Assembly (NCBI RefSeq): GCF_013041615.1
Contig: NZ_JABEPQ010000001.1
Coordinates: 186,001-250,000, forward strand
Length of the DNA: 64,000 nucleotides
Reading direction: 5' to 3'
Source: Knoellia koreensis
GTDB taxonomy: Bacteria > Actinomycetota > Actinomycetes > Actinomycetales > Dermatophilaceae
A program made the position numbers and the translations under genes. The notes below the pieces were generated by a model. That model was not told the origin of the DNA. It ran no database searches and was given only the letters and a program-made list of their open reading frames with translations. Shown here in pieces: positions 6,671-21,015 of this stretch. Every line of letters starts with the position of its first letter. Within the stretch, counting starts at the first letter, position 1.

Positions 6671-6747
6671 GGGGCAGTAGCTCAGTCGGTCAGAGCAGCG
6701 GACTCATAATCCGTCGGTCGTCGGTTCAAGCCCGACCTGCCCCACCA
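6671..6747 (+). tRNA. tRNA-Met (anticodon CAT)
   Basis: A full cloverleaf: acceptor GGGGCAG pairs with CTGCCCC, the D-arm follows, the anticodon loop CTCATAA carries CAT at 6705-6707, the T-loop is TTCAAGC, and a discriminator A with encoded CCA ends at 6747. It lacks initiator features and is most likely elongator Met; a lysidine-modified Ile tRNA also reads CAT and cannot be excluded. The gene is the integration site of the downstream element, whose 48-bp att core replaces its 3' half from the anticodon stem onward, so the tRNA stays functional. Confidence 0.93.
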
Positions 6748-6748
6748 C
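6701..6748 (+). repeat. attL: attL: 48-bp direct repeat in tRNA-Met
   Basis: This segment is identical to 20968-21015. It starts in the anticodon stem, runs through the T-arm and CCA end of the tRNA and finishes one base beyond. It is the left attachment core of the integrated element. Confidence 0.93.
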
Positions 6749-6807
6749 TGTTTCAGCAGGTCAGCGGCCTGCAGGTGTGTCCTCGACATGGTTCCTCCCC
6801 TTGCTCC

Positions 6808-6826
6808 TGCTACGGATTTGCTAACG
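6808..6826. promoter_or_regulatory. Putative integrase arm-binding site pair (left)
   Basis: TGCTACG (6808-6814) and TTGCTAACG (6818-6826) lie about 60 bp inside attL. Nearly the same pair in swapped order lies inside attR (20843-20861). Short direct repeats flanking att cores are typical arm sites for tyrosine integrases with an N-terminal arm-binding domain. Confidence 0.4.
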
Positions 6827-6830
6827 AGCG

Positions 6831-7088
6831 TCATTCCATCCCCTCCAGAACGGTCTGAACATGGGTGAAGACTGCCTGGCGAACCTTGTCGTCGGGCAGG
6901 CCCTCCCAGCGGGCCGCGATCCCCAGCGCCGACGCGGCAATCACGGCCAGGGCGTGTGCCACGTCCTCTGCAGCGTCGTCGGCCAGCGCGGCTCGGATCA
7001 TGTCGTCAACCAGGGCGCCCTCCGGGTCCTCGGCTGCGCTCGTGACGATCGCCATCGCGTTTCGCACGCTGCCCTTCCAGGAGATCAC
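6831..7088 (-). CDS. Hypothetical protein coupled to integrase
   Basis: An 85-residue, alanine-rich, probably all-helical protein (MISWKGSVRNAMAIV to VQTVLEGME). I do not recognise the family. The GTG start at 7088 overlaps the integrase stop by 4 bp (GTGA), so it is translated from the same leftward transcript. A longer upstream extension of this frame would run into the integrase and is rejected. Its position between int and attL suggests a link to integration or maintenance, but nothing in the protein shows this. Confidence 0.6.
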   Translation of the reverse strand: MISWKGSVRNAMAIVTSAAEDPEGALVDDMIRAALADDAAEDVAHALAVIAASALGIAARWEGLPDDKVRQAVFTHVQTVLEGME

Positions 7089-8233
7089 GCGCCCCACACC
7101 GCCTTCGCGAACGTCTCGACCGCCCGACCGTCGTCGTCCGGGATGGCGTCGGCGTAGACGTTGAGCGTCACAGAGGGGTCCTTGTGGCCCAAGCGCTTGG
7201 CAACGACGTGCACCGGCACGCCGTCGCGCAGCAGCATCGTCGCGTGGGTGTGGCGGAGTTCGTGGAGCCTGAGCCGGGGAACGGCAAGCCCGTCCGTGAT
7301 CCGGCCGAAGGTCCTCGTGACGTAGTCGGGCAGCGCGGCTCGGCCGTCCTCCCAAGTGAAGACCAGCCCCTCGGCGCCGCGGTATGCGGCGCCCCAGGCA
7401 AGCTGCTCGGCCATCTGCGCCTTGCGCCACTCGCGCAGGGTCGTCACCGTGCGCTCGTCGACCGTCACGTCACGCCGCTCGTGGTTCTTCGGCGTCACGT
7501 AGACGCGCTCCTGCGCGACCTGGGTCACCGACCGCTCGACGTGAATCACGCCGGCGTCGAGGTCCACCTCTGACCAGCGCAGCGCCAGCAGCTCGCCGCG
7601 GCGCATGCCGGTCGCGGCCGCGAGGGTCCACAGGGGCGCCCAACGGTCGTCCTCGTCCACCTGCTCGAGGAACGCGCGCAGCTGCGGGCCAGTCCAGGTC
7701 GTGTGCTTCGGCTTGACGACCTTCGGGCGCTTGGTCCCCACCACGGGGTTGACCTCGAGAGCCCTGTCGAGCACCGCGTCCTGCATCGCCCGACGCAGCA
7801 CCGCCCGGGCAAACTCCACCGTGCGTGGCGACAGCGGCTTGCCGTCCTTGCCGCCGGACTCGTACAGGTCCTTGAAGACCACGGACAGGCGCGAGGGGGA
7901 GAGGGACTGCAGCCGCTCGTGACCGATCGCCGGCTTGAGATAGCGGCCGATGTTGTCGCGGTACGACTTCGCGGTCGACGGCTTGAGCTCGACGGCGTGA
8001 GCGTCCACCCAGCGGTCGAGGTACTCGCCAACGGTCAGGGCCTGAGGGGCCACGTACGTCCCACGGTTGACGGCATGCCGAGCCTCGTCGCGAGCCTTCT
8101 TTGCAGCGGCGCGTGTGGGGAAACCCCCAACCCAGCGTGGCTTGGTCTTCCCGGTCTGCACGTCGCGCTCGCGGACGACGTACGACCAGGTCTTGCCGCG
8201 CTGGATGATCCCATCGCGCATCTTCTCAGGCAT
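7085..8233 (-). CDS. int: Tyrosine site-specific integrase
   Basis: A 382-residue phage-type tyrosine recombinase that would insert the element at tRNA-Met and, with an excisionase, excise it. An N-terminal arm-binding segment (about residues 8-60, AP2-like) is followed by a SAM-like core-binding domain (about 65-165) and the catalytic domain. Catalytic residues are visible: Arg211/212 in TGMRRGE, His324 and Arg327 in HELRHTH, His350 in LGH and nucleophile Tyr360. The ATG at 8233 overlaps the repressor stop by 8 bp; upstream in-frame codons lie over that gene and are rejected. It is transcribed toward attL. Confidence 0.94.
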   Translation of the reverse strand: MPEKMRDGIIQRGKTWSYVVRERDVQTGKTKPRWVGGFPTRAAAKKARDEARHAVNRGTYVAPQALTVGEYLDRWVDAHAVELKPSTAKSYRDNIGRYLKPAIGHERLQSLSPSRLSVVFKDLYESGGKDGKPLSPRTVEFARAVLRRAMQDAVLDRALEVNPVVGTKRPKVVKPKHTTWTGPQLRAFLEQVDEDDRWAPLWTLAAATGMRRGELLALRWSEVDLDAGVIHVERSVTQVAQERVYVTPKNHERRDVTVDERTVTTLREWRKAQMAEQLAWGAAYRGAEGLVFTWEDGRAALPDYVTRTFGRITDGLAVPRLRLHELRHTHATMLLRDGVPVHVVAKRLGHKDPSVTLNVYADAIPDDDGRAVETFAKAVWGA

Positions 8234-8774
8234 TGCCCTGCTCCTCCCCGGTCGCGATGGCGCGCAGTGCTTCGACGACCATCTGCGATATGTGATGTTC
8301 CTCGAGGCCGACTGCCCACTCAGGGTGGTTCGCGTCGACCGCTTCGGCGATGTGAGCGGCCAGCTCGTGCCGGTCACCGATCGCCGACCGGAGTTGCTCC
8401 ATAAGTTCACCGGCACGGCGGGCTGCGTCCTCCGCTTCCATGCTCAGCTGATAGGCGTCCAGGAACGCGGCGGCGGCCTTTTCAGCCAGCTCGATCGCGT
8501 GGCCCGGCAGTTGCAACTCAGGGTCTGTCACCAGCTCCGCCATCGGCACCCCGAAGACCTTGGACAGCACTACGAGCTCGTCAACGGTGATCCGGCGCGG
8601 GGGATCGCCCTTCTCGATCTTCCACAGGGCGGAGGCGTGGATCTTGCAGCCAGCGGCTTCCGTGCGCTTGGAGAGGCTGTCGTAGTTCATACCGCGGCTC
8701 TCGCGCTCCATGGCGATGCGCCTCGCGAGATACGACTCCGCGAAGAGCTCTCGCCCTTGGGTCTTCCGTGGCAC
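8226..8774 (-). CDS. Xre-family repressor-like regulator
   Basis: A 182-residue protein with an N-terminal Cro/CI-type helix-turn-helix (about residues 15-80, including ERESRGMNYDSLSKRTEA and IHASALWKIEKGD) and an acidic, helical C-terminal half. It is transcribed leftward with int and divergently from the excisionase-like gene at 8888. This is the standard switch arrangement, so it probably represses the rightward early promoter and its own. The operators would lie in 8775-8887. Confidence 0.82.
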   Translation of the reverse strand: MPRKTQGRELFAESYLARRIAMERESRGMNYDSLSKRTEAAGCKIHASALWKIEKGDPPRRITVDELVVLSKVFGVPMAELVTDPELQLPGHAIELAEKAAAAFLDAYQLSMEAEDAARRAGELMEQLRSAIGDRHELAAHIAEAVDANHPEWAVGLEEHHISQMVVEALRAIATGEEQGNA

Positions 8775-8887: not shown

Positions 8888-9082
8888 ATGGACAAGCTGC
8901 TCACCACACAGGAGGTCGCCGACCTGACTCGCGTCACGGTCCACACTGTGCGCTTCTGGCGCAAGAACGGCACCGGCCCTCAGGGCTTCCGGCTCGGCAA
9001 GCGCGTGGTTTACCGCGAGCGGGACGTGCAGACCTGGGTACAGCAGCACCGGCGCGCTGAGCTCTGCCGAGGTGCTGCATGA
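8888..9082 (+). CDS. xis: Excisionase/AlpA-type winged-helix protein
   Basis: A 64-residue protein with the MerR/AlpA-like helix-turn-helix LLTTQEVADLTRVTVHTVRFWR, then a wing with FRLGKRVVYRERDVQTW. This layout is typical of excisionases and small early activators of actinobacterial integrative elements. It starts the rightward early operon opposite the Xre repressor. Direct excisionase activity is inferred from position and fold. Confidence 0.72.
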   Translation: MDKLLTTQEVADLTRVTVHTVRFWRKNGTGPQGFRLGKRVVYRERDVQTWVQQHRRAELCRGAA

Positions 9083-9203: not shown

Positions 9204-9488
9204 ATGACCCCGGACCAACTCAGATCCCGCCTGACCGTCACGGTCCCCGAGGCCGGTCGAGCCCTGGGCATCGGGCGAGACGCGGCGTACGCCGCAGCAG
9301 AACGCGGCGAGATTCCGACGCTGCGGCTCGGTCGCCGGCTCGTCGTGCCCACCGGCCGACTGCTCGAACTGCTCGGCATCCCCCAGACAGACAGCGAGGC
9401 CGGGCCCGCCAGCCCGACCGTCGCCACCACCGAGCCCGTGGAAGGGGCCCACAACCATGGTGACACAGCACGTCTCCGTTCAGCCTGA
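9204..9488 (+). CDS. Small helix-turn-helix DNA-binding protein
   Basis: A 94-residue protein with an excisionase-like HTH (VTVPEAGRALGIGRDAAYAAAERGEIPTLRL, wing LGRRLVVPTGRLLELLG) and a disordered Thr/Ala-rich tail. The ATG at 9204 is preceded by GGAGGAG about 12 bp upstream. It is the second MerR/AlpA-like protein in the early operon, so one of the two may be the excisionase and the other a transcription factor. Its end overlaps the next gene by 32 bp. Confidence 0.65.
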   Translation: MTPDQLRSRLTVTVPEAGRALGIGRDAAYAAAERGEIPTLRLGRRLVVPTGRLLELLGIPQTDSEAGPASPTVATTEPVEGAHNHGDTARLRSA

Positions 9489-9765
9489 ACTTCCCGCACT
9501 CGACGACTGGTGGGCCGACGGAGCCCTGAGGGCGATCGAGGCACTCGCCGCTGCAGGCGTGATCTTCTCTGCCGACGACCTGCGGGACGACCCGTACAAC
9601 CTCCCTGCGCCGCATCACCCGAGCCAGTGGGGCGCCGTGTTCGCCAAGGCCAAGCAGGCCGGGCTCATCAAGCCCGTCGGGTATGCGGCGTCCCGCACCG
9701 GCTCACGCAACGGCGGAGTCCTCCGGCTGTGGCGCGGCACCAAGGGAACGGCGGCCGCGGCATGA
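9457..9765 (+). CDS. Hypothetical phage early protein
   Basis: A 102-residue protein with a tryptophan-rich start (ALDDWWADGALRAIEALAAAG) and a possible winged-helix fold (WGAVFAKAKQAGLIKPVGYAASRTGSRNGG). Similar short proteins occur in early regions of actinophages; no function is assigned. The end overlaps the next start by 4 bp. Confidence 0.6.
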   Translation: MVTQHVSVQPELPALDDWWADGALRAIEALAAAGVIFSADDLRDDPYNLPAPHHPSQWGAVFAKAKQAGLIKPVGYAASRTGSRNGGVLRLWRGTKGTAAAA

Positions 9766-10088
9766 CCCGGCCCGCACCCGGCACCCCGGTGCTTCGGCCC
9801 GCACCGCACGAAGCCTCCGCTTGGTTGCGCCAACGGATGGAGGCGCGCGTCTGTGCGGCCGAGGAACTGGGGGAGCCACGCGACGCCAAGACGACCGTGG
9901 TCGCCCCTCTGGGCCGCACACTGAACACGCACGACACGCGCGAGGACCGTACATGCGACCGCTGCCGCACGTACGTGCCCACCGACGAGACCTTCCACGG
10001 CCTCATCGTCCAGCCCGTTCCATGGCTCGTGCTCATCGGCGGCATGTGCCGGGACTGCATCGTCCGCGAAGGGGTGTCGTCCTGGTGA
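9762..10088 (+). CDS. Hypothetical protein with CxxC pairs
   Basis: A 108-residue protein starting at the ATG that overlaps the preceding stop (ATGA). The C-terminal half has two CxxC pairs, CDRC and CRDC, about 35 residues apart, consistent with a zinc-ribbon or treble-clef knuckle. The in-frame extension upstream of 9762 lies over another gene and is not used. The function is unknown. Confidence 0.62.
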   Translation: MTRPAPGTPVLRPAPHEASAWLRQRMEARVCAAEELGEPRDAKTTVVAPLGRTLNTHDTREDRTCDRCRTYVPTDETFHGLIVQPVPWLVLIGGMCRDCIVREGVSSW

Positions 10089-10417
10089 GCCATGAACACA
10101 CACCGTTCGAGCTGCTACGCCAGCACCAGCTCATTCAGGACGCGCTCGACCAATCGACAACCCCCGGCGCGGACCTCCTCGACGCCACCCACGCCGCGTG
10201 GCGGGCCGGCTACGACCTCGGGTACGCGGCCGGCCAGATGGCCGCCTCGATCGACCTCGCCAGGTCATGGCTGCTCGACCTCGCCCACGATGCCGAGCGC
10301 CTCGCTGTCGGCGAAGCCACCCGACGCCACGGCCGGGGCTGGGCGGCCGCCATAGAGCGTCAGGCGCGGCTCCCTCAGACCGCCCCCGTCGGCCTTCGAG
10401 CGGTGGGAGGCCCGTGA
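10085..10417 (+). CDS. Hypothetical helical phage protein
   Basis: A 110-residue, predominantly helical, His- and Ala-rich protein (MSHEHTPFELLRQHQLIQDA, RAGYDLGYAAGQMAASIDLA). The GTG start overlaps the preceding stop by 4 bp, and its own stop overlaps the next GTG. I do not recognise the family. Confidence 0.6.
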   Translation: MSHEHTPFELLRQHQLIQDALDQSTTPGADLLDATHAAWRAGYDLGYAAGQMAASIDLARSWLLDLAHDAERLAVGEATRRHGRGWAAAIERQARLPQTAPVGLRAVGGP

Positions 10418-11844
10418 GCGCCGCACCCGCCATCTACGACCACGTCGTGGTCGGCAACGAGGTCGAGCATCCAAGCTTCGGCGTCGGCATCGTCGCGGAC
10501 GTGACGACCGTGCACGACGAGCCCTGCGCGACCGTCGACTTCGCGCCGCCCGTCGGTCGCAAGCGCCTCATGCTGCGCATCACGCCCCTGAGCGGACGCA
10601 GCCGCACCCCGGACGCGGACAAGTTCGAGGGGGATGTGATCGAGGCTCTCGACCGCATGAAGGTGCAGCGGGCGGCGAAGGCCGCCCTCGAGGCCGAGCT
10701 CGTGCCCGAGGCGCCCCCGTTCGACCACGGCACCCTGCGTCAGATCCTCGAGCGCCCCAAGCCGCCGCCAATGCGCGCACCCGGGCTCGTCCCCTCTGAG
10801 GCCGGCGTGCTCGTCGTCGCCCAGCGCAAGACCGGCAAGACCACGCTCGAGCTGAACTGGGCCCGGTGCCTCCTGACCGGCGAGACGTTCCTGGGTCGCT
10901 TCCCCGTGCGCCCCATCAAGGGCAAGGTCGCCATCCTCAACTACGAGGTCTCCGGCGACACCCTCGGCCTGTGGGCCGACGAGCGCGGCGTCCCGGCTGA
11001 TCGCCTGCACCTGGTCAACCTCCGTGGCCGCCGCAACCCGCTGAGCCACCCCGGCGACCGCGAGCGCCTGGCCGACATCCTGCGCGGCGAGCAGGTCGAG
11101 GCCATCATCGTCGACCCGTTCGGGCGCGCGTTCACCGGCAAGAGCCAGAATGACCCCGGCGAGGTGGGCGCCTGGCTGGTCGACCTCGACCTCTTCGCCC
11201 GCGGAGAGGTGGGTGCCACCGACCTCATGCTGACCGCCCACGCCGGATGGAACGGCGAGCGCTCGCGAGGCTCCAGTGCACTGGAGGACTGGGCCGACTC
11301 CATCCTGTGGATGACCCGCGACCAGAACGACGACACCAAGCGCTTCCTGCGCGCCGAGGGTCGCGACGTGCTCGTCGACGAGGACCAGCTGCTCTTCGAC
11401 GAGTCCACCCGGACCTTGGCGATGGCCGGCACCGGCGGACGGAAGAAGGCGCGCACCGCCGAGAAGGTCCACGAGCTCATGCCCTACGTTCGCCGGGCTG
11501 CCGCCCAGGTACCGGGCGGATCGCGCGCCGACCTCACCCGAGCCATGCGGAAGATGCCGGACTGCCCCAGCTTCCAAGACCGCGACGTGGCGGCAGCCGC
11601 CGACCTAGCCGACGAGCAGGGGCACATGCGGATCGAGGACATGGGTCCGGGCAAGGCCAAGAGGCACTATCCGGCCACCCCGTCCAACCCCGTCCAAACC
11701 CCGTCCACGGACGCACCCCCGACACCCCGTCCAACCCCGTCTATAGGTGGACGGGGTCGGGGTGGACGGGGTCAGGGCCAGGAGCATGCCCTGGACGTGG
11801 ACGGGGTCAGCGACCCCAGTAGCGACTCCCAGGAGGCGTCATGA
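10414..11844 (+). CDS. RepA-like AAA/RecA-fold replication ATPase
   Basis: A 476-residue protein with an N-terminal domain (1-120), then a RecA-fold ATPase core resembling RepA/AAA_25 hexameric helicases of phages and plasmids. Walker A is AQRKTGKTT (136-144), Walker B is IIVDPFGRAF (Asp234), and the sensor-like TAHAGWNGERSRGSSALEDWAD follows. The C-terminus has a winged-helix-like segment, then a low-complexity Pro/Thr/Gly-rich tail encoded by an iteron array. It most likely drives replication of the excised element. The GTG start overlaps the previous stop by 4 bp. Confidence 0.8.
   Translation: MSAAPAIYDHVVVGNEVEHPSFGVGIVADVTTVHDEPCATVDFAPPVGRKRLMLRITPLSGRSRTPDADKFEGDVIEALDRMKVQRAAKAALEAELVPEAPPFDHGTLRQILERPKPPPMRAPGLVPSEAGVLVVAQRKTGKTTLELNWARCLLTGETFLGRFPVRPIKGKVAILNYEVSGDTLGLWADERGVPADRLHLVNLRGRRNPLSHPGDRERLADILRGEQVEAIIVDPFGRAFTGKSQNDPGEVGAWLVDLDLFARGEVGATDLMLTAHAGWNGERSRGSSALEDWADSILWMTRDQNDDTKRFLRAEGRDVLVDEDQLLFDESTRTLAMAGTGGRKKARTAEKVHELMPYVRRAAAQVPGGSRADLTRAMRKMPDCPSFQDRDVAAAADLADEQGHMRIEDMGPGKAKRHYPATPSNPVQTPSTDAPPTPRPTPSIGGRGRGGRGQGQEHALDVDGVSDPSSDSQEAS
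11678..11806. repeat. Iteron array, candidate origin of replication
   Basis: Eight copies of a 9-10-bp unit lie within 130 bp at the 3' end of the Rep gene. CCCCGTCCA begins at 11678, 11688, 11699 and 11725, with a degenerate copy at 11735. TGGACGGGG, its reverse complement, lies at 11748-11756, 11763-11771 and 11798-11806. Spacings are mostly 10-11 or 15 bp. An iteron cluster inside the initiator gene parallels the lambda O origin. No AT-rich unwinding element is obvious apart from CTATAGG at the centre. Confidence 0.6.
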
Positions 11845-12619: not shown

Positions 12620-12636
12620 TGCTAACGGCTTGCTAC
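12620..12636. repeat. Third copy of the att-arm-like repeat pair
   Basis: TGCTAACG (12620-12627) then TGCTAC (12631-12636) repeat the pair found near attR (20844-20860), with the same order and nearly the same spacing. Here they sit at the boundary between the rightward early operon and the leftward cargo genes. Confidence 0.35.
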
Positions 12637-12896
12637 TTCACGATGGCCACCACCAGCGCGCCGATGGACACCGCCAGGCTGCCCACGGCCAGGCCTATGG
12701 CCCAGCGCTGGAGGTTTCCGGCCTCTCGGTCGAGGCGCTCAACGGTCTCCTCGAGCTGGCGCATGGCGATGACCACGGCGGCAGTCTGCACTTCTTTGCC
12801 CCGGCCCGAGTCCCACGAGTAGAGGTCCCCGTTCGCCGCCGCCAAGGCGCGAACCGTGGGGTGCTCAAGGTCGTCCGCGAATCCCATGAGGGCCAT
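12633..12896 (-). CDS. Small protein with C-terminal membrane anchor
   Basis: An 87-residue protein with a soluble N-terminus, a short coiled coil (QLEETVERLDREAGNLQRW) and a C-terminal transmembrane helix (about residues 66-85). It is leftward within the element, opposite to the surrounding rightward genes, and follows two co-oriented genes. The layout resembles small phage-encoded exclusion or morphogenesis membrane proteins, but no family is recognised. Confidence 0.6.
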   Translation of the reverse strand: MALMGFADDLEHPTVRALAAANGDLYSWDSGRGKEVQTAAVVIAMRQLEETVERLDREAGNLQRWAIGLAVGSLAVSIGALVVAIVK

Positions 12897-12917
12897 GATG
12901 CCCGGGTTCAGCCCCGA

Positions 12918-13511
12918 TCAGTGGCGACCGATTCCGCGAGCGATGGCCTCGAGGGCCTTTGCGGTGCGCTTGGGGATGTCCGACCCACCGGGCTTGTCGC
13001 TGGGACTCGTGGAGGTGCTGTTGCGCAGCGTCTCGACGCTAAGGGGATACGCGTCCTTGTAGCGGGTTCGCCCACGCATGTCGGTGTAGGAGAAGGAGAT
13101 CGTGAACGAGTTCGGCACGGGTTCGTCATTCTGGTCGCCCATGACCGTGTAGACGTTGATGAGCTTCATGCCGGGCGCGACCGTGGGGATGACCTGGTCA
13201 TACCGCTTCTCCAGGAAGGGCGTGATCTTGCCTCTCGCCTCGGCGCCCTCGAGCTTCGGGAGGGGCGGGTCAAAGATCACTCGGACGTCCCTCGCCGGCG
13301 TCGGGCCGTAGTTCGTGACGACGAGCTCACTCGTGCCGTGCGAGAGCGGGTGGGCCTGGAGGTAGGCCCCCATCACCGGGCGAGTCCGATCTTGGCTGTC
13401 TCGCCGGAGGGCGAGGAGCGTCATGATCGCCACGACCGCCGCTGCCAGGGTTGCGAGGGCGCCGACCGCGGACCAGAAGGCGCTGTATTGCTCGGGCGTG
13501 TAGGTGATCAT
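12918..13511 (-). CDS. Single-pass membrane protein, cargo gene
   Basis: A 197-residue protein with an N-terminal membrane helix (about residues 12-35, FWSAVGALATLAAAVVAIMT), then a conserved RDSQDRTRPVMGAY segment and a beta-rich domain including LVVTNYGPTPARDVRVIFDP. Proteins with this layout are common, uncharacterised genes in actinobacterial genomes and prophages. The start overlaps the upstream stop by one base (TGATG). The protein at 18831-19382 has the same architecture. Superinfection exclusion is possible but unproven. Confidence 0.65.
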   Translation of the reverse strand: MITYTPEQYSAFWSAVGALATLAAAVVAIMTLLALRRDSQDRTRPVMGAYLQAHPLSHGTSELVVTNYGPTPARDVRVIFDPPLPKLEGAEARGKITPFLEKRYDQVIPTVAPGMKLINVYTVMGDQNDEPVPNSFTISFSYTDMRGRTRYKDAYPLSVETLRNSTSTSPSDKPGGSDIPKRTAKALEAIARGIGRH

Positions 13512-14005: not shown

Positions 14006-14284
14006 GTGACATCCTTCGACAGTTCGAGCTTCGCCATTCCCGCTCAGGCGAGTGAGCAGTGGGCGGAACTGACTGAGGTCCTGCGGTCCACGGGTCCGGC
14101 CGGCTGCGAGTCGTCGGCGATGCCGGAGGCGTGGTGGTCCTCGTCGCTGGAGGCCGAGGCGGTTGCGGTGTGTCGTTCGTGCCCAGTCGCTCGCGAGTGC
14201 TTGGCCTACGCGCTCGCAGCCGGCGAGCGGGACGGCGTGTGGGGTGGGTTCACGAATGCCGAGCGACGGGGCCTGGCGCAGTGA
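14006..14284 (+). CDS. Phage WhiB-family iron-sulfur regulator
   Basis: A 92-residue Wbl protein. The four cluster-binding cysteines are Cys34, Cys56, Cys59 and Cys65 (C-x21-C-x2-C-x5-C), followed by the family turn GVWGG (77-81). The basic C-terminal AT-hook-like tail is short (NAERRGLAQ), as in phage copies. A GTG start with a TAGGCG -10-like element 7-12 bp upstream suggests a leaderless message. It opens the rightward operon ending at the tape-measure gene, so it may activate those genes or interfere with host WhiB proteins as WhiBTM4 does. Confidence 0.82.
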   Translation: MTSFDSSSFAIPAQASEQWAELTEVLRSTGPAGCESSAMPEAWWSSSLEAEAVAVCRSCPVARECLAYALAAGERDGVWGGFTNAERRGLAQ

Positions 14285-14628
14285 GGTGGCCAGAGGATCG
14301 TTCGCAGGAGGCGCTCGATGGGCTGATGATCTTGGCGCAGGTGGCGATCAGGGCAAAGGGGCGGACCGTGCCGCCCGTGGTGTGTGAGCTGATGGATGCC
14401 CTTCAGGCCGACAGCGTTTCCGATTCCGGAAGCGCTGGCGAGTCGTCCGTCAGTCTTGAGGACGTGAGCACGAGGGTGACCGCAGACGAGGCCGGTGCAG
14501 CCGTGGGTTTGAGCGGGCGCCAGGTCCGCAACCTGTGCGCCGCCGGCCTCGTCAGCCACACCCGGGCTGGGCGCGCGTACGTCGTCGACCTGACCGATCT
14601 GCGCCGACACCTGGGCCAGGCGTCGTGA
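14281..14628 (+). CDS. Helix-turn-helix protein coupled to WhiB
   Basis: A 115-residue protein with a C-terminal MerR/excisionase-type HTH (VTADEAGAAVGLSGRQVRNL, then a wing RAGRAYVVDLTDLRRHL). The first half is helical and unassigned. The GTG start overlaps the WhiB stop by 4 bp. It probably acts with the WhiB protein as a transcriptional regulator of the operon. Confidence 0.65.
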   Translation: MRWPEDRSQEALDGLMILAQVAIRAKGRTVPPVVCELMDALQADSVSDSGSAGESSVSLEDVSTRVTADEAGAAVGLSGRQVRNLCAAGLVSHTRAGRAYVVDLTDLRRHLGQAS

Positions 14629-14939: not shown

Positions 14940-15706
14940 GCGGCGCGGACAGCTACTACGCCCGCCGTGACGCCGAGAAGGCCCGCGATCGGATCAGCGG
15001 GGCACGGAGCCGCCTGTCCGAGCTGCGCAAGGCGTTGCAGGCTGCGATCGGGGAAGCCAGGAGCTTCACCCACCCGGACTACACCCCCGAGGGACTGGGC
15101 CGACGGCGGCAAGAGCTGGTCGAGCAGGCGCGGGCGAGGTTCCGCCCGCAGCTCGAGCAGCTGCAGGCGCAGGTGTCCAACGACGCGGACACGATCGGCC
15201 GCTTGGCCAAGAGCACCCGCCCGGCCCTGGCAGACGACCCAGTCGCGTTGCAGCGGGCACTCATCCGCTGGGACCAGGTGCGAGGAATGCTCGAGGCGGG
15301 CAAGCCCCTTCGCTCGGTCGTGGCCGAGGCGGACGTGGACACCCTGGTCGCTGTCGGCGAGTGGGGCCCGTCGTGGCTCGAGGCGCAGGCGTACGCCGAC
15401 CGACCGGCCGCCGGCAGTCCGATGATGCGCGAGACGCCAAAGGTCGACGGCGAGGCGCTGCAGAGCGCGATCACGGCACGCCTGCTCGAGGTTGCCGACG
15501 CCGATACCCGCTGGGCGTTGAGCGCGCAGCAGGTGGCCGATCAGGCCGTCGGCGGATTCACGCCTATGGCCGAGCATGTGGGGCGCCTCCTCGACGCCTC
15601 CGGTCCGCCGAGCAGCGGTCTGGAGGCGGCACTGGCGGCCCACTACGGCGAGCAGGCCGCGACCGCCTCGCTGGACGCGGTGGGCGACGGCGGTGAGGCA
15701 GCGTGA
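14936..15706 (+). CDS. Hypothetical coiled-coil phage protein
   Basis: A 256-residue mainly helical protein with an N-terminal coiled coil (about residues 8-75, DAEKARDRISGARSRLSELR and QARARFRPQLEQLQAQV) and an Ala-rich helical remainder. The GTG start overlaps the previous stop and the stop overlaps the next start. Its position before the tail chaperone and its helical nature would suit a scaffold or tail-morphogenesis accessory protein, but I see no diagnostic motif. Confidence 0.55.
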   Translation: MSGADSYYARRDAEKARDRISGARSRLSELRKALQAAIGEARSFTHPDYTPEGLGRRRQELVEQARARFRPQLEQLQAQVSNDADTIGRLAKSTRPALADDPVALQRALIRWDQVRGMLEAGKPLRSVVAEADVDTLVAVGEWGPSWLEAQAYADRPAAGSPMMRETPKVDGEALQSAITARLLEVADADTRWALSAQQVADQAVGGFTPMAEHVGRLLDASGPPSSGLEAALAAHYGEQAATASLDAVGDGGEAA

Positions 15707-16083
15707 GTGCAATGCTCCGCGACTCCTCGGAGATCTTGGACCTGTGCCTGCGGCTGCCGATCCATGGCAAGACCTACGAGGTCTACCCGCCGAGCCCGGC
15801 CACCCACGACCAACTCGCAATGAGACTCGCCTTGGGTATCGCGCTCGACGCCGGCGTCGAGATACCTGAAGAGGATGCGCGCACCCTTCAGATCACCGAC
15901 GACGACATGCCGGACTTCGCCACCATGTGCCTCGGCGACACCTACGAGCAGATGCTCGCCGACGAAGTCTCACACCCGGAGATCGAGCTCGCGCTCGTGA
16001 CGGCGTTCTACGCCTGGACCCTCGGCATGGAGGTCGCGGAGGCGTACTGGGAATCCGGCGGCCGTCTGGTCACCCGATCGTGA
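15703..16083 (+). CDS. Putative tail assembly chaperone (DUF7426-like)
   Basis: A 126-residue protein (ILDLCLRLPIHGKTYEVYPPSP, then FATMCLGDTYEQMLADEVSHPEIELALVTAFYAWT). It resembles the short chaperone-like proteins directly upstream of tape-measure genes in actinobacterial siphophages. The usual frameshifted second ORF is not possible here because only 15 bp separate it from the tape-measure start. The GTG start overlaps the previous stop. The assignment rests on position and general resemblance. Confidence 0.6.
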   Translation: MSAMLRDSSEILDLCLRLPIHGKTYEVYPPSPATHDQLAMRLALGIALDAGVEIPEEDARTLQITDDDMPDFATMCLGDTYEQMLADEVSHPEIELALVTAFYAWTLGMEVAEAYWESGGRLVTRS

Positions 16084-16098
16084 TCGTGAGGAGCTGAC

Positions 16099-18834
16099 AT
16101 GCCCCTGAACATCGGTGAGCTCGTCGCCTACGTCAAGGTCGACCACAGCGCGGTCGGTCAGAACATCCGGGCAGCCCAGGCGCAGATGCGCGCCGAGATG
16201 ACCCGCATGCAGCAGCTAGCGGCCACGCAGGGCGAGAGCATCGGCAAGGCCGCCGGGTCGAAGATCTCCGAGTCGTTCAAGGCGAGCGTCAAGGACCTCG
16301 GCAAGGGCCTCCTCGGGGCCTTCGCAGTCGAGCGCGCTGTCGCTGGGCTCAAGTCCCTCGCGAGCCAGGCATCCGACCTCAACGAGACCACCAACCTGAC
16401 GGGTGTGGTGTTCGGCAAGAACGCCAAGGCGATGGAGGACTGGGCCAGGACGAGCGACCGCACCCTCGGCCTGTCGCAGCAGCAGGCGTTGGAGTCCGCC
16501 GGCGCATTTGGCGACATGTTCTCCCAGCTCGAGTTCGGCGGCGACCAGGCGGCCGCCATGTCCCGGCAGGTGCTGCAGCTGGCCGCCGACCTCGGCAGCT
16601 TCAAGAACCTGCGCACCGAGGACGTGGTTGAGCGGCTGTCGGCGGCGTTCCGCGGCGAGTACGACAGCCTGCAGGCGTTGATCCCGAACATCAGCGCGGC
16701 CCGGGTCGAGCAGGAGGCGATGGCCGAGACCGGCAAGTCCTCGGCCACCCAACTGACCGCCCAGGAGAAGGCCACGGCGACGTTGGCGATCGTCACCAAG
16801 GACGGCAAGAACGCCATCGGCGACTTCGCCCGCACCCAGGACGGCGCAGCCAACGCCAGCAAGATCAGCGCAGCCGAGGCGGCGAACCTGCGCGCCGAGC
16901 TCGGGCAGAAGCTCCTGCCGGCGTACACCGCTCTGATCCTGTTCGGCCGCGACCAGGTGCTGCCGTTCCTGTCCAGCGTCGTCAACGGATTCGAGGAGGC
17001 CGCCGACGCTACCGAGCCGCTGACCGACGGCATCGGCGACGTCGTGAAGACCTTCCAGCAGATGCCGGCCCCTGTGCAGTCCTCGACGGTGGCCCTGCTC
17101 GCCTTCCTGGCCCTGCGCAGCCGCGTCGAAGGTGTTGGCACGGCGCTGGGTAGCAAGGTCACCAGCAGCGCCCGGAGCGCGTCCTCCGCGCTGGACACGG
17201 TGCGCCTCAACATGATGTATGCCGGGGACGCTGCCCGCGGCACCGAGAACCGCCTCGTCGGCGTCACCAAGGCCATCGGCGCGGCCGGCGGCGCAGGGCT
17301 ACGCGGCGCGGCCAGCGGCCTGCTAACGATGCTGGGCGGGCCCTGGGGAGCCGCGTTCGCGGGCGCCGTCGCGGGCGTCACCCTCTTCATCACTCAGCAC
17401 GAGAAGGCCAAGCAGGAGGTGCAGGACCTCACCGCCGCGATCGAGGCCGACTCTGGCGCCCTGGGCAAGAACACCCGAGAGCGGGTCAAGAACGCCCTCG
17501 AGACCTCAGGGGTCCTTCGCGCCGCGGCCGACCTGGGCCTCGACCTGCAGAAGGTCACCGACGCCGCGCTGGACCAGGCAGACGCCCAGAAGTACGTCAA
17601 CGACGAGCTCGAACGCCTGGCGTCGCTGCAGAAGGATCCCGGCCTGAACCTCAGCAAGTACGGCGACCTCGTCGGCCAGCGCCGCGACATGGAGAAGGTG
17701 CGCGAGGGCATCCTCGGACGCAACGACGCCGTCCGTGACGCCATCGGCCAGTCCAAGCGCCTCGCGGCCGCCGACGGCGAGGCCACCGACAAGATCGGCG
17801 CCCTGGACGCGGCCACCAAGAACAGCACCGACAGCACCCGCGACTACACCGACGAAGTGACGGACGCCGCGAAGGCCGTCCTCGAGTTCGCCGACGCCCA
17901 GCTCAAGGCCAGCGGCGCCCAGGTCAGCTACCAGGACGCACTGGCCAACGTCGACGAGCGCCTCGCCAAGCGCAAGGAGCTCGAGGCCGAGCTGCGCAAG
18001 ACCACCGACAAGGACGACCGAGCTCGGATCAAGAAGGACCTCGAGGACTACGCGCTCACGCTTGATGTGACGACCAAGGCCGGCCGCGAGAACAAGAAGG
18101 CCCTCGACGATCAGGCCGAGACTGCACGCGGCCAGGCTGAAGCCAACCTCGCCGCCGGGAAGTCCTACGAGGAGGTGCGCCGCCAGATGGCGGACGCCCG
18201 CAAGGACTTCATCGCGAACGCCGAGAAGTTCGGGCTCAACGAGAAGGCCGCCAAGAAGCTCGCCGACCAGTACGGCCTCACCCGTAAAGACGTGGACGCC
18301 TTCGCCGAGTCACTCGGCCTCGTACCCCACGACGTGATCACGTCCGTCAAGACCAAGGGCATCACCGCGGCTCGCAACGGGGTTGCGCTCCTCAAGCAGG
18401 AGCTCAAGGAGCTCGACGGGACCGTCGTCATCCGCGTCCAGCGACTGGTCACCGACACCGACGGCAAGAGCTCGGGCGGAGGCAAGATCACCGCCGGCGG
18501 GCAGGTCGCCTTCAACGCCGACGGCGGCTACTACCCCGCCTCGCAAGGCGCTCGCCTGTTCACACCGAGCGACGGAATGAAGTACGTCTTCAACGAGCCC
18601 GAGACCGGCGGCGAGTCCTTCATCCCCCACGCACCAGGCAAGCGTCGGCAGGCTCTCAAGGTCCTCGACCAGACGGCTGACCTGTTCGGTCTCACCCTCG
18701 CGCCGAAGTCAGTCACGAACGACAACCGGCAGTCGGTACGGATCGACCGCATCGTCGCCCAAGACGTGGCCGACTTCGAGCGGCAGATGAGCGTCAAGGC
18801 GCGCCTCACCGCGCTGTCCGGGCAGGACGGCTAG
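16099..18834 (+). CDS. Phage tail tape-measure protein
   Basis: A 911-residue protein that would set tail length and exit first during DNA ejection. The N-terminus is a long helix/coiled coil (LVAYVKVDHSAVGQNIRAAQ). The middle has Ala/Gly-rich hydrophobic stretches (about residues 390-435, GAAGGAGLRGAASGLL), then charged coiled-coil segments to about 760. The C-terminus carries the tape-measure ending with NADGGYYPASQGARLF and FNEPETGGESFIPHA. Minor tail genes normally follow, but here the next gene runs antisense and overlaps the stop by 4 bp. Confidence 0.88.
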   Translation: MPLNIGELVAYVKVDHSAVGQNIRAAQAQMRAEMTRMQQLAATQGESIGKAAGSKISESFKASVKDLGKGLLGAFAVERAVAGLKSLASQASDLNETTNLTGVVFGKNAKAMEDWARTSDRTLGLSQQQALESAGAFGDMFSQLEFGGDQAAAMSRQVLQLAADLGSFKNLRTEDVVERLSAAFRGEYDSLQALIPNISAARVEQEAMAETGKSSATQLTAQEKATATLAIVTKDGKNAIGDFARTQDGAANASKISAAEAANLRAELGQKLLPAYTALILFGRDQVLPFLSSVVNGFEEAADATEPLTDGIGDVVKTFQQMPAPVQSSTVALLAFLALRSRVEGVGTALGSKVTSSARSASSALDTVRLNMMYAGDAARGTENRLVGVTKAIGAAGGAGLRGAASGLLTMLGGPWGAAFAGAVAGVTLFITQHEKAKQEVQDLTAAIEADSGALGKNTRERVKNALETSGVLRAAADLGLDLQKVTDAALDQADAQKYVNDELERLASLQKDPGLNLSKYGDLVGQRRDMEKVREGILGRNDAVRDAIGQSKRLAAADGEATDKIGALDAATKNSTDSTRDYTDEVTDAAKAVLEFADAQLKASGAQVSYQDALANVDERLAKRKELEAELRKTTDKDDRARIKKDLEDYALTLDVTTKAGRENKKALDDQAETARGQAEANLAAGKSYEEVRRQMADARKDFIANAEKFGLNEKAAKKLADQYGLTRKDVDAFAESLGLVPHDVITSVKTKGITAARNGVALLKQELKELDGTVVIRVQRLVTDTDGKSSGGGKITAGGQVAFNADGGYYPASQGARLFTPSDGMKYVFNEPETGGESFIPHAPGKRRQALKVLDQTADLFGLTLAPKSVTNDNRQSVRIDRIVAQDVADFERQMSVKARLTALSGQDG

Positions 18835-19382
18835 GGCACGTCTTCGTACTGGCCGGTCTGCTGGTTCAGCTGCTGGATGGTCGGCTCGGTGGCGATGAAG
18901 TCCGACAGTGGGATCCGTTGGGTTTTGCGCTTCCGCCGCCTCGTGGGCGTTGCGGTCCATTCGAGGATCACCGCGGCTGAGCGGAACATGTCCTTGGTGA
19001 CGTCCGGGACCCAAACCTCTCTCGACTCGCCGGGTTGCAAGACCGCCGCGAACGACTCAGAGACCGCCGAGACGCCCGACATCGACGCCTTGGCGAGGCG
19101 GCGGTTGAGCTCCGCCTCGCACCCCCGGCCGCAGACCTCGACCTTGAAGGCTGGCCCATCACCCGCATTAGTGATGGTTCCGATCAACGAGGGCGGGCGC
19201 TTCGGGTCTGAGTCGCCGAAGTGGTTCCTCGCCTGGCTCCAGTACCCGGTCACTGCCCAGTCGGGCTGGGCGCGATCGTGCCAGCGCATCCAGATGGCGA
19301 AGGCGGCCGCAACTGCCGTAGCGACGGCAGTTGCGATGCCAGCGCTTGCGCCGATGATGGTCCACAATTCGGTCGTCGTCAC
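18831..19382 (-). CDS. Single-pass membrane protein, cargo gene
   Basis: A 183-residue protein with an N-terminal transmembrane helix (about residues 5-30, ELWTIIGASAGIATAVATAV), RWHDRAQPDWAVTGYW, and a beta-rich domain (IGTITNAGDGPAFKVEVCG, LQPGESREVWVPDVT). The architecture matches the gene at 12918-13511, an N-terminal helix followed by a domain with a conserved LIGTITNxGDGPA-like strand, although the sequences are clearly divergent. The GTG at 19382 is my start choice; an ATG at 19436 is also in frame. It occupies the place of the missing minor tail genes. Confidence 0.6.
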   Translation of the reverse strand: MTTTELWTIIGASAGIATAVATAVAAAFAIWMRWHDRAQPDWAVTGYWSQARNHFGDSDPKRPPSLIGTITNAGDGPAFKVEVCGRGCEAELNRRLAKASMSGVSAVSESFAAVLQPGESREVWVPDVTKDMFRSAAVILEWTATPTRRRKRKTQRIPLSDFIATEPTIQQLNQQTGQYEDVP

Positions 19383-19471
19383 TCCCGCACCATGCCATGG
19401 AAGCGGGGCAGGTGCTTTCGAATGGCAGCGCCCCACCCCGCAACTTCGAGTGGGGCGCCACGAGGTCCGGG

Positions 19472-19708
19472 TCAGACTTTGAACATCGCTTCGAGCCGTC
19501 GTATGTCACACGTGCGACACAGGTGCTGCGGCTCTTCCCGGTCAACCCTTGCCACCGTGGTCAGCTCCTGCCTGGCGTGTGGGATCGTCCGACCACAGAG
19601 CGCCACATCGAAGTCAACGGTGGTCAGCACGATGACGATGTGCCAAGGCTTCCGGTGACCACCCTGTTGCAGCTGCTCGGCCACCTCAGTCACGTTCGCG
19701 TCGCTCAT
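19472..19708 (-). CDS. Small zinc-knuckle-like protein
   Basis: A 78-residue protein with ALCGR and LCRTCDIRR (one Cys, then CxxC) around WHIVIVLTTVDFDVALCG. It resembles the many short actinobacterial and phage proteins with a truncated zinc-ribbon pattern. Its ATG overlaps the upstream stop by 4 bp. The function is unknown. Confidence 0.6.
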   Translation of the reverse strand: MSDANVTEVAEQLQQGGHRKPWHIVIVLTTVDFDVALCGRTIPHARQELTTVARVDREEPQHLCRTCDIRRLEAMFKV

Positions 19709-20070
19709 CGCAGACCCTCCAGCAGGTCGCAGGCAGCCTCGAGCGCCTTGGCGAGACGTCGTGCGTCCGCCAGCTCGAGGGCGACCCCACCCACGAAGCC
19801 GGGCGCGGTGCCCGATGCCCGCACGAGGTCGCGCCAGTCGTCGCCGTTGTCGTGCCGGAACCCCTGGACGAAGACCTCGATCGCCTTGTCGGTCTCGGCC
19901 GGCGCCCACGTGTCGACGCGGGCGGATTCGTACCAGCAACCGCGGTCGTCGGGGTGCTGGTCGCCGCCCCTGGCGGGCTCGTCGAACTCGGGCGACGACC
20001 AGGCGGGCCGGGCCGGGTAGGTAGGAGCACCGATGTTGGTGCCTTCGTTGTGCTGCATGCTGTTGCTCAC
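19705..20070 (-). CDS. Hypothetical acidic protein
   Basis: A 121-residue acidic protein (MSNSMQHNEGTNIGAPTYPA to LEAACDLLEGLR) with a disordered N-terminus and a C-terminal helical region (GGVALELADARRLAKALEAACDLL). It is translationally coupled to the downstream small Cys protein. No family is recognised. Confidence 0.58.
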   Translation of the reverse strand: MSNSMQHNEGTNIGAPTYPARPAWSSPEFDEPARGGDQHPDDRGCWYESARVDTWAPAETDKAIEVFVQGFRHDNGDDWRDLVRASGTAPGFVGGVALELADARRLAKALEAACDLLEGLR

Positions 20071-20103
20071 GATCGTTCTCCACTTCCGTTGGTGATCGGT
20101 CTA

Positions 20104-20137: not shown

Positions 20138-20172
20138 GCTTCTTGTGTACCGCTGCCTTGTGACAGCGGGGT

Positions 20173-20361
20173 CTAGGTGGTGGGTCTCGACTTCACCCAC
20201 GCGTCGAGCTCGGCTTCGCTGATGCGCCAGCAGGCGCGGCGCTTGCCGGACGAGAGGTTGCGGGCGGGCAGGGGGCCCGTGCGCATCCACAGCGCGGCGG
20301 TCTCGGGGTGGACCTGCAACCGCTCAGCCACCTGGGCCGGCGTCAGCAACTGGTCAGTCAT
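20173..20361 (-). CDS. Helix-turn-helix excisionase-like protein
   Basis: A 62-residue protein with the AlpA/excisionase-type HTH LLTPAQVAERLQVHPETAALW and wing LSSGKRRACWRISEAELDAW. The ATG at 20361 is chosen over an in-frame upstream start because it leaves only an 8-bp overlap with the upstream gene. It is the last gene of a leftward cluster inside attR. Confidence 0.66.
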   Translation of the reverse strand: MTDQLLTPAQVAERLQVHPETAALWMRTGPLPARNLSSGKRRACWRISEAELDAWVKSRPTT

Positions 20362-20551
20362 CGCGACCCTCGAGGTCTCGGCGGGCGCGGTTGGCGGTGA
20401 AGATCCGCCGGAGTCGGGCAACCTGCGCGTCCGACAGCGGTGGGGCTTTGGCGATCTCGGCCTTGACCTGGTCGAGAGCGGCCTGTCCGTACTTGGCGCG
20501 GAACTCGGTGTGCCAGGACGGCTCAGCGGCGGGCGCGTTGCCTTCCGTCAT
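20354..20551 (-). CDS. Hypothetical small helical protein
   Basis: A 65-residue charged helical protein (SWHTEFRAKYGQAALDQVKA, LSDAQVARLRRIFTANRARR). It resembles short proteins often encoded between excisionase-like genes in actinobacterial integrative elements. It overlaps both neighbours. Confidence 0.58.
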   Translation of the reverse strand: MTEGNAPAAEPSWHTEFRAKYGQAALDQVKAEIAKAPPLSDAQVARLRRIFTANRARRDLEGRDD

Positions 20552-20745
20552 CGGGGCCTCCTCTCGTCGAGCCAGCGCCTGAGCGCATCTACGTCGTAGC
20601 GCCAGCGCGGGGTGCGGTCGGTGCCGACGTTGATCGCGAAGGCGTCGTACTCGCCGCGGCGGGTGTGCTTGCGCACGGTCTTGATGTGCTCGCCGAGGAC
20701 GTCGGCCAGCTGCTGCGCCGTGATGAGGCGGGGGAGCTCCGTCAT
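20548..20745 (-). CDS. Helix-turn-helix DNA-binding protein
   Basis: A 65-residue protein with the HTH LITAQQLADVLGEHIKTVRKHT and wing TDRTPRWRYDVDALRRWLDE. It is the second MerR/AlpA-like protein of this end of the element. The ATG overlaps the upstream stop by 4 bp. Confidence 0.65.
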   Translation of the reverse strand: MTELPRLITAQQLADVLGEHIKTVRKHTRRGEYDAFAINVGTDRTPRWRYDVDALRRWLDERRPR

Positions 20746-20912
20746 CGCGACAGCCTCGCCGCGCCCACCAGTCGGCACAACCAGCACAGCGGGATGCCGC
20801 GCCAGGAGTGCTCGGCCGGGCTCTGTCGGCAGCGGGCACACGGTGCTAACGCCGTGCTACGTCGCCCCTCAGGACCAGCCGCCACGAGACCGGATGAGGT
20901 CGCCACGTGCAC
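20742..20912 (-). CDS. Small four-Cys protein
   Basis: A roughly 56-residue ORF containing CARC and CWLC pairs, a plausible zinc knuckle. The stop overlaps the next ATG by 4 bp (ATGA), in line with the coupling of the whole cluster, which is the main argument that it is real. The start could be the GTG at 20912 or at 20906. Confidence 0.42.
   Translation of the reverse strand: MHVATSSGLVAAGPEGRRSTALAPCARCRQSPAEHSWRGIPLCWLCRLVGAARLSR
20843..20861. promoter_or_regulatory. Putative integrase arm-binding site pair (right)
   Basis: GTGCTAACG (20843-20851) and GTGCTACG (20854-20861) lie about 107 bp inside attR. They mirror the left pair at 6808-6826 with the two elements in the opposite order. 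Confidence 0.4.
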
Positions 20913-20967
20913 CCACTGCTGAGCACGAGCCGGGACCGGGTCCGACGGGGCAGGATCTAGTGGGACC

Positions 20968-21015
20968 GACTCATAATCCGTCGGTCGTCGGTTCAAGCCC
21001 GACCTGCCCCACCAC
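20968..21015 (+). repeat. attR: attR: 48-bp direct repeat (tRNA-Met 3' half)
   Basis: This is a perfect copy of 6701-6748: the anticodon stem through the CCA end of tRNA-Met plus one base. No 5' half precedes it, so it is a displaced fragment of the tRNA and not a second gene. Confidence 0.93.

What the first reader, a model, noticed from the sequence alone, without database searches (positions are those of the whole stretch)
6701..21015. Compact integrated element with a tape measure and tail chaperone but no head, portal or terminase large-subunit gene
The element has intact att repeats, an intact integrase, repressor, excisionase-like genes, an ATPase with iterons, a terminase-like small protein, a WhiB protein, a tail chaperone candidate and a full-length 911-residue tape measure. 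Genes from 14006 to 16083 overlap by 4 bp with no visible frameshift. This is unlike random decay. A satellite that encodes its own replication plus a tape measure could remodel or hijack a helper phage tail. The alternative is a prophage that has lost its structural middle and end.
Basis: partly seen in the sequence, partly recalled or inferred. Interest (0 to 1): 0.7.

Follow-up and report, generated by a model that had tools for sequence, protein, structure and literature searches.

The report
Phage satellite carrying a tail ruler
A 14-kb mobile island in an actinobacterium keeps its own integration and replication genes plus only the "ruler" and chaperone of a phage tail, and similar islands in other genera suggest it is a phage parasite that builds part of a borrowed tail rather than a broken phage.

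Summary
A 14.3-kb element lies between perfect 48-bp repeats at a tRNA-Met gene. It codes for integrase, excisionase-like proteins, an AAA replication protein with iterons, a small-terminase-like protein, WhiB, a DUF7426 tail chaperone and a 911-aa tape measure protein (TMP). No portal, capsid, tail-tube or large-terminase gene was recognised. Four more att-bounded TMP islands without portal or capsid (9.7-14.9 kb; tRNA-Pro, tRNA-Arg, glnA twice) lie in two other genera. Two were found without using TMP as bait. One (L206) repeats the order int, xis, RepA, helical-type protein, TMP, and shares a protein not found in phage collections. This favours a satellite over a decayed prophage. The nearest known mechanism is chimeric-tail piracy by Vibrio PLE satellites (Nature 2026). 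Best reading: the island borrows a helper siphophage's head and tube but builds the tail on its own TMP. Its chaperone lacks the frameshift-type extension seen in 9 of 9 prophages examined. Caveats: function untested; no helper found; TMP islands are rare (none recognised in 20 loci taken by integrase); only the window has the chaperone; two RepA relatives carry head genes plus a TMP. New variant of a known kind.

The parts
6671..6747 (+). tRNA-Met(CAT), attachment gene
   Evidence: ARAGORN
6701..6748 (+). attL core, 48 nt
   Evidence: identical direct repeat
20968..21015 (+). attR core, 48 nt
   Evidence: identical direct repeat
7085..8233 (-). tyrosine integrase
   Evidence: phrog_1 2e-77; PF00589 4e-21
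8226..8774 (-). HTH repressor-like
   Evidence: phrog_3 7e-6; PF01381 4e-5
8888..9082 (+). excisionase-like HTH_17
   Evidence: phrog_66 5e-11; PF12728 6e-12
9204..9488 (+). second HTH_17-like protein; homologues in L051 (52%) and L048 (44%)
9457..10417 (+). three small genes (9457-9765, 9762-10088, 10085-10417), coupled to each other and to repA by 4-nt overlaps
   Evidence: ATGA/GTGA; 9762-10088 has a 34% match in L206
10414..11844 (+). RepA-like AAA_25 ATPase, replication
   Evidence: PF13481 3e-27, phrog_906 2e-10; strong relatives in 4 other family genomes and 11 other genomes of the order sample (two genomes are in both)
11676..11810 (.). iteron array: 5 direct and 3 inverted 11-nt units, candidate origin
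   Evidence: near-identical unit at the corresponding place in L048
11996..12571 (+). small-terminase-like protein (TerS)
   Evidence: 42% to the gene just upstream of TerL in L051; HK97 TerS first structural match, Z 7.8, not significant by Foldseek
12633..13957 (-). cargo cassette 1 (12633-12896, 12918-13511, 13511-13957)
   Evidence: no Pfam or PADLOC match; NCBIfam none for the last two; 12918-13511 phrog_9607 1.6e-9, unknown function
14006..14284 (+). WhiB regulator
   Evidence: PF02467 4e-16
14281..14628 (+). small HTH protein; 33% homologue between TerL and the 243-aa protein in L051
14625..14939 (+). 104-aa protein sharing a 39-52 aa segment (66-69%) with a gene one to three genes downstream of the capsid gene in prophages L085, L088, L128
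14936..15706 (+). 256-aa protein, predicted helical, homologue in L206
   Evidence: 5e-18, 30% to L206; no match in INPHARED or in the IMG/VR scan; AF2 N-terminal helical hairpin pLDDT mostly 80-95, mean of whole 58
15703..16083 (+). tail assembly chaperone (DUF7426), without frameshift-type extension
   Evidence: PF24201 6e-26
16099..18834 (+). tape measure protein, 911 aa
   Evidence: phrog_7025 2.5e-18, phrog_10780 2e-16
18831..20070 (-). cargo cassette 2 (18831-19436, 19472-19708, 19705-20070)
   Evidence: no PADLOC match for 18831-19436 and 19705-20070; 19472-19708 is an open frame only
20173..20421 (-). excisionase-like HTH_17 (start may be 20361)
   Evidence: PF12728 2e-12, phrog_66 9e-11
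20548..20841 (-). excisionase-like HTH_17
   Evidence: PF12728 1e-6, phrog_66 3e-9

Best explanation
This is a phage satellite (PICI-like island), not a prophage remnant. Shown from sequence: it is bounded by att repeats and codes for integration, excision-like regulators, an AAA replication protein with an iteron array, a small-terminase-like protein and a partial tail module (chaperone plus TMP). No head, TerL, tail-tube or distal-tail gene was recognised. Inferred: on infection by, or induction of, a helper siphophage the island excises and replicates from its own origin, and its TerS marks its DNA for the helper's large terminase and capsid. Its chaperone and TMP replace the helper's TMP in tail initiation, so that the helper's tube and tip assemble on the satellite's ruler, giving chimeric tails on particles that carry satellite DNA. 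The chaperone has no C-terminal extension in the -1 frame, so an extended form would have to come from the helper, or the short form also hampers assembly on the helper's own TMP.
For: Similar architecture with the same gaps in L206, found by RepA and not by TMP: 45-bp tRNA-Arg repeats, 14.9 kb, int, xis, RepA (46%), a homologue of the 14936 protein (5e-18) and an 850-aa TMP (phrog_9228 1e-40), no head hit. L051, found by TerS and not by TMP: 44-bp tRNA-Pro repeats, 14.0 kb, int, rep, TerS, TerL, HTH, a 243-aa protein, a 785-aa TMP (phrog_1272 1e-59) and an AbiV gene, no portal or capsid hit. L054 (glnA, 29 bp, 9.7 kb) and L127 (glnA, 24 bp, 10.1 kb), both found by TMP, are two more. The four lie in two other genera, one in another family of the order (handles). 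0 of these 5 att-bounded elements (window included) had portal, capsid, protease or tail-tube hits, while 28 of 31 comparison TMP loci had at least one. The best matches of the islands' TMPs are different complete phages (L206's is 63% to an IMG/VR phage contig with capsid and tube genes). Frames are open with seven GTGA/ATGA couplings. At the tRNA-Met locus of 10 congeners only integrase and xis hits were seen. Precedent: PLE11 encodes TMP and TAC, its virions carry PLE TMP in place of ICP1 TMP, and deleting tmp cut transduction about 99.9% (PMC12987554, sections 8-9 read).
Against: No experiment was possible. No resident helper of this tail type: one TMP and one DUF7426 match in the own genome. 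The window's chaperone, 14625 and WhiB have no match in the other five TMP islands, so chaperone plus TMP is seen here once. TMP-blind sampling by integrase recognised a TMP in 0 of 20 further loci, several of them degraded; by RepA, 1 of 11 other order genomes is a TMP island without head genes. RepA relatives L208 and L210 carry head genes and a TMP. Satellite TMPs are not shorter than prophage TMPs (median 860, n=6, against 895, n=25; p=0.36). The 14625 gene and the chaperone both match prophage L128, the chaperone best there, which would also fit derivation from a phage by deletion. The TMPs are not wholly separate lineages: L051 and L206 share 44% over 280 aa, window and L127 33% over 403 aa, window and L206 25% over 262 C-terminal aa. 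The proteins before TMP in the other islands are not detectably related to 14936 (E 0.016 or worse). TerS rests on synteny and a modest structural match.
Confidence: 0.6

Rival explanations
1. The TMP and chaperone are weapons, not parts: a satellite-borne TMP and a short chaperone soak up helper tail-tube or hub protein so that the helper makes defective tails, protecting the host; transfer, if any, uses unmodified helper tails.
For: The chaperone lacks the extension that 9 of 9 prophages examined have, as a dominant-negative might. Tail-assembly targeting by mobile elements is documented (Tai, PMC11364771, passages; Rta, PMC12987554). Cargo in L051 is AbiV.
Against: A full-length 911-aa TMP is more than a decoy needs. 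In PLEs the satellite TMP is used in virions. An origin and a TerS-like gene imply a transfer cycle (inference).
Confidence: 0.17
2. A prophage that has lost its head, tail-tube and lysis genes and is on the way to decay.
For: The 14625 protein resembles a gene near the capsid gene in three prophages, and the chaperone's best match is in one of them, L128. The missing chaperone extension could itself be a loss. G009 holds an integrase relic at the same tRNA, so decay happens here. RepA relatives L208 and L210 carry head genes and a TMP.
Against: All listed frames open and seven start-stop couplings; same gaps and a shared protein unknown from phages in L206; three further att-bounded TMP islands without portal or capsid on other integrases and att sites.
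Confidence: 0.15
3. The TMP is the payload of a contractile injection system, as in Streptomyces Sle1-type effectors.
For: TMP-related effectors are widespread in Actinobacteria (PMC13277306, abstract).
Against: It sits in an integrating island beside a siphophage-type chaperone; no effector domain was found by Pfam or NCBIfam. Whether the host has a contractile system was not searched.
Confidence: 0.03

Closest known systems
Vibrio cholerae PLE satellites with chimeric tails (PMC12987554)
   Same: Integrated satellite that codes for its own TMP and tail chaperone but not for most of the tail.
   Different: No PLE sequence was compared; siphophage-type TMP and DUF7426 chaperone instead of a contractile-tail set; no baseplate hub recognised; actinobacterial host; function untested.
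Phage-inducible chromosomal islands (SaPI-type PICIs)
   Same: Size, integrase, divergent repressor region, own replication with iterons, TerS-like gene, accessory cargo, no virion cluster (list of features recalled).
   Different: Carries TMP and tail chaperone; AAA_25 RepA; no capsid-redirecting gene recognised.
Capsid-forming PICIs
   Same: Compact att-bounded island. Some cf-PICIs are reported to hold putative tmp genes (Extended Data Fig. 10 legend, PMC12987554).
   Different: The mirror image: cf-PICIs bring heads and borrow tails; this element has no recognised head gene. Islands L162, L164, L173 with portal and TerL matches use integrases related to those of TMP islands L054 and L127.
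Streptomyces Mulch/Flayer satellites (PMC10690885)
   Same: Actinobacterial phage satellites.
   Different: They encode capsid and packaging genes and lack key replication genes (abstract and passages); 'tape' does not occur in the main text.
Mycobacterium candidate PICIs (PMC10654092)
   Same: Small actinobacterial islands, those with tyrosine integrases at tRNA genes.
   Different: Defined there by integrase plus major capsid gene (passages), so a capsid-less TMP island would not be counted.

Membership tests
PLE-type chimeric-tail satellite | satellite-coded TMP | tested here: met
   phrog_7025 2.5e-18
PLE-type chimeric-tail satellite | satellite-coded tail assembly chaperone next to tmp | tested here: met
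   PF24201 6e-26, 15 nt upstream of tmp
PLE-type chimeric-tail satellite | satellite TMP replaces helper TMP in virions | not testable with these tools
   needs virion proteomics
PLE-type chimeric-tail satellite | sequence relationship to PLE genes | not tested
   no PLE sequence was compared; phage TMP hits are mostly Microbacterium, Arthrobacter and Gordonia phages
PICI / satellite | integrase and flanking att repeats, compact size | tested here: met
   48-bp repeats, 14.3 kb
PICI / satellite | own replication protein and origin | tested here: met
   PF13481 3e-27; iterons; replication itself untested
PICI / satellite | TerS for redirected packaging | tested here: inconclusive
   homologue precedes TerL in L051; HK97 TerS Z 7.8; no family hit
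PICI / satellite | no complete virion cluster | tested here: met
   no hit with 44 head and 8 tube references at E 1e-4
PICI / satellite | induced and mobilised by a helper | not testable with these tools
   needs induction or infection
cf-PICI | own capsid, portal and terminase genes | tested here: not met
intact prophage | complete head, tail and lysis genes | tested here: not met
   lysis judged only from the absence of a hit among the 20 proteins scanned
decayed prophage | broken or truncated phage genes | tested here: inconclusive
   all listed frames are open and couplings intact, but the chaperone lacks the extension found in prophages

The most novel reading that the evidence does not exclude
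Actinobacteria hold a class of 'ruler-only' satellites. On interchangeable island backbones either a capsid module or a lone TMP module is carried, and the TMP is exchanged between islands to match different helper siphophages while, in at least two of them, a satellite-specific partner protein is kept. Piracy would act at tail initiation rather than at capsid size, and in the window a chaperone without its extension would favour the satellite's ruler over the helper's.
Probability: 0.33. Interest if true: 0.78.

Novelty: new variant of a known kind. Interest (0 to 1): 0.6.

Why it matters
By its own account a March 2026 paper (PMC12987554) made PLEs the first satellites known to manipulate tail assembly, with only putative tmp genes elsewhere. 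TMP islands without portal or capsid in Actinobacteria, on different integrases and att sites, would show that replacing the tail ruler is a recurrent strategy, and would give siphophage systems in which to ask why a satellite needs its own TMP. They also warn that surveys which call 'integrase plus one structural domain' an intact prophage (PMC10023795, passages), or define islands by integrase plus capsid gene (PMC10654092, passages), misfile or miss such elements.

Tried and rejected
Shortened tails: not supported. TMP lengths of 6 islands do not differ from 25 prophages (the start of the L127 TMP is uncertain).

One related family of proteins next to TMP: not supported beyond the window and L206. 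The two-sequence profile gives E 0.016 or worse for L054, L127, L048, L209, L051 and L052. The chaperone, WhiB and 14625 have no match in the other five TMP islands.

Wholly separate TMP lineages: not borne out; several island TMPs share weak or partial similarity.

Resident helper with the same tail: none by TMP or DUF7426.

Near-identical element in phage or plasmid records: no megablast match. RepA reaches 5 Mycobacterium phage/prophage records at about 30%. TerS, the chaperone, 14625 and 14936 had no tblastn match in phage records at the limits used. IMG/VR scans for TerS, RepA and 14936 gave nothing; the TMP scan gave one partial phage contig. The genome-contig scan for RepA gave one short contig, L058.

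Defence function of the cargo: no PADLOC hit for the five window cargo proteins scanned.

Structure: single-sequence AF2 of 14936 gave mean pLDDT 58 and was not searched. TerS: no Foldseek match at E 0.001. The VIA list is led by HK97 small terminase, Z 7.8 and 7.2, against 6.6 for the next row.

Counts and what was left out. One search gave 20 places and one search gave 4; leaving out L054 and L127 themselves, 20 of 22 were fetched (the second G112 copy and G179 were not). In one search, places in G038, G077 and G078 were not followed. In one search, 92 of the 97 genomes matched only at E above 1e-7, mostly over about 50 N-terminal residues, and were not followed. Head-gene references come from the prophages and loci in hand; a locus's own references were ignored, except that L051 was scored with its own TerL.
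Full report
WHAT IS THERE. The element runs from 6701 to 21015 and is bounded by two identical 48-nt repeats, the left one at the 3' end of a tRNA-Met gene. Reading in from the left: integrase, repressor-like HTH, excisionase-like HTH, a second HTH, three small genes, an AAA_25 replication-type ATPase, a small-terminase-like protein, a minus-strand cargo cassette, then WhiB, an HTH protein, a 104-aa protein, a 256-aa protein predicted helical, a DUF7426 tail chaperone and a 911-aa tape measure protein. A second minus-strand cassette and two more excisionase-like genes close the element. Seven gene junctions are 4-nt GTGA or ATGA couplings. The replication gene ends in an iteron array, five direct and three inverted copies of an 11-nt unit. 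RepA relative L048 has a nearly identical unit at the corresponding place.

WHAT IS NOT THERE. With 44 head references (TerL, portal, protease, capsid) and 8 tail-tube references taken from loci in hand, the element gives no hit at E 1e-4. Twenty-eight of 31 comparison loci that carry a TMP give at least one (one of them, L079, tail tube only). The three misses are L056 (partial contig), L057 (its own references were ignored) and L135.

IS IT A BROKEN PROPHAGE? (a) TerS in 186 family genomes: one other hit, L051. It is a 14.0-kb island with 44-bp tRNA-Pro repeats. It holds integrase, Rep, TerS directly followed by a large terminase, an HTH protein, a 243-aa protein, a 785-aa TMP and an AbiV gene; no portal or capsid was recognised. 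(b) RepA in 396 order genomes: 12 hits including the window. Nine loci were newly fetched; G055 and G087 were already held as L049 and L050. L206 is the same kind of element: 45-bp tRNA-Arg repeats, 14.9 kb, int, xis, RepA 46%, a homologue of the 256-aa protein (5e-18), an 850-aa TMP and no head hit. Against this, L208 has TerL, portal, capsid and a 468-aa TMP without recognised distal tail genes, and L210, with a 35% RepA, is a complete phage (its TMP lies in the overlapping locus L130). L205 has a lone capsid match; L203 has a capsid-looking gene by eye only, with no hit. In L204, L207, L209, L211, L049 and L050 neither a head gene nor a TMP was recognised. (c) TMP in the family and the order: L054 (glnA repeats, 9.7 kb, 553-aa TMP) and L127 (glnA repeats, 10.1 kb, about 870-aa TMP) are two more, and L052 is a fragment of similar layout on a 7.7-kb contig. 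(d) The integrases of L054 and L127: in 20 further loci fetched, no TMP was recognised. Three (L162, L164, L173) match TerL and portal references and hold a capsid-looking gene by eye; L177 has a weak capsid match; the rest show neither, and several are degraded. So TMP islands without head genes are real and recurrent but uncommon, and the same integrase type can carry a head module instead.

WHY SATELLITE. L051 and L206 were found without using TMP. The four other islands lie in two genera, one in the window's family and one in another family of the order. The 256-aa protein is shared by the window and L206 and was not found in 50,697 phage records or in an IMG/VR pattern scan; it is predicted all-helical at low mean confidence. 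The islands' TMPs match different complete phages best: the window's is 56% to prophage L119 over 194 aa, L206's 44% to prophage L084 over 630 aa and 63% to an IMG/VR phage, L127's 42% to prophage L123 over 711 aa. They are not wholly separate, however: L051 and L206 share 44% over 280 aa, window and L127 33% over 403 aa, window and L206 25% over 262 aa. A partly conserved backbone with exchanged rulers fits adaptation to different helpers. Against this, the 104-aa gene has segments in prophages L085, L088 and L128 shortly downstream of the capsid gene, and the chaperone matches L128 best, so the module was taken from a phage at some time. The chaperone, the 104-aa protein and WhiB are not found in the other five TMP islands.

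A DETAIL OF THE CHAPERONE. In nine prophages examined, an open -1 frame of 161-272 nt follows the chaperone stop before the TMP and encodes a conserved segment, as expected for a programmed frameshift (slippery sites were not analysed). In the window the gap is 15 nt and the -1 frame closes 11 nt after the stop. A profile of that segment finds it in 3 of 11 held-out control loci, which are three whose chaperone matches the window's, and in none of 6 islands; for the other five islands that is expected, since no DUF7426-like chaperone was found in them. In lambda the T part of GT recruits tail-tube protein (recalled). The island would then need the helper's extended chaperone, or its short form may interfere with the helper.

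THE SITE IN RELATIVES. The right flank matches in all 11 genomes of the genus, the window's included. In the 10 congeners the tRNA-Met locus lacks the window element. G009 keeps a 53-aa integrase end, 92% identical, and two att copies 2.1 kb apart, a relic; G006 and G007 hold other integrases there.

COMPARISON WITH THE KNOWN. The nearest precedent is PLE11 (PMC12987554; sections 8 and 9 read in full, other passages seen). PLEs code for a TMP and chaperone, PLE11 virions contain PLE TMP and not ICP1 TMP, and tmp deletion lowers transduction by 96-99.9%. [quoted passage not shown] I saw no report of TMP-bearing satellites in Actinobacteria in the listings of searches, which cover open PMC papers only. 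Works like a PLE: likely. Is a PLE: not claimed. Is PICI-like: size, integration and replication features fit, TerS is inconclusive, induction and transfer are untested.

VERDICT. Satellite origin is about 80% likely in my judgement and chimeric-tail use about 60%. New variant of a known kind; interest 0.6.

Noticed in passing
window 6671-6747 and flanks 1-4444, 21022-22116: The tRNA-Met gene is inverted relative to DUF3145 compared with all 10 congeners: there its 5' end faces DUF3145, here its 3' end does, although the left flank matches the polysaccharide-export genes found beyond the tRNA in G005 and G001.
   Followed up: partly
L181 (G009) 53-2229, reverse-complement coordinates: Relic of a closely related integrase (53 aa, 92%) between two att copies 2.1 kb apart at the same tRNA-Met: what decay looks like at this site.
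   Followed up: partly
L162, L164, L173: Three att-bounded 9.8-10.2 kb islands at the glnA 3' end with TerL and portal matches and a capsid-looking gene (by eye), no tail genes recognised, i.e. capsid-forming-PICI-like; integrases 60-69% identical to that of the TMP island L054.
   Followed up: partly
L205 (and L203): RepA-related locus L205 has a capsid match but no recognised portal, TerL or TMP, a possible capsid-redirecting satellite; L203 looks similar by eye only.
   Followed up: no
L208 5400-18272: RepA relative with TerL, portal, capsid and a 468-aa TMP but no recognised distal tail genes before a serine recombinase: head plus ruler in one compact element.
   Followed up: partly
window 14625-14939; L085, L088, L128: A 39-52 aa segment, 66-69% identical, is coded one to three genes downstream of the capsid gene in three prophages and in the island's TMP operon; function unknown.
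   Followed up: partly
L051 3572-4435; L127 10652-11448; L206 2940-6058: Island cargo: HEPN AbiV (PF18728 2e-28), a Gp49-like protein next to an HTH protein (toxin-antitoxin-like by eye), and DUF6932 and HIRAN proteins.
   Followed up: no
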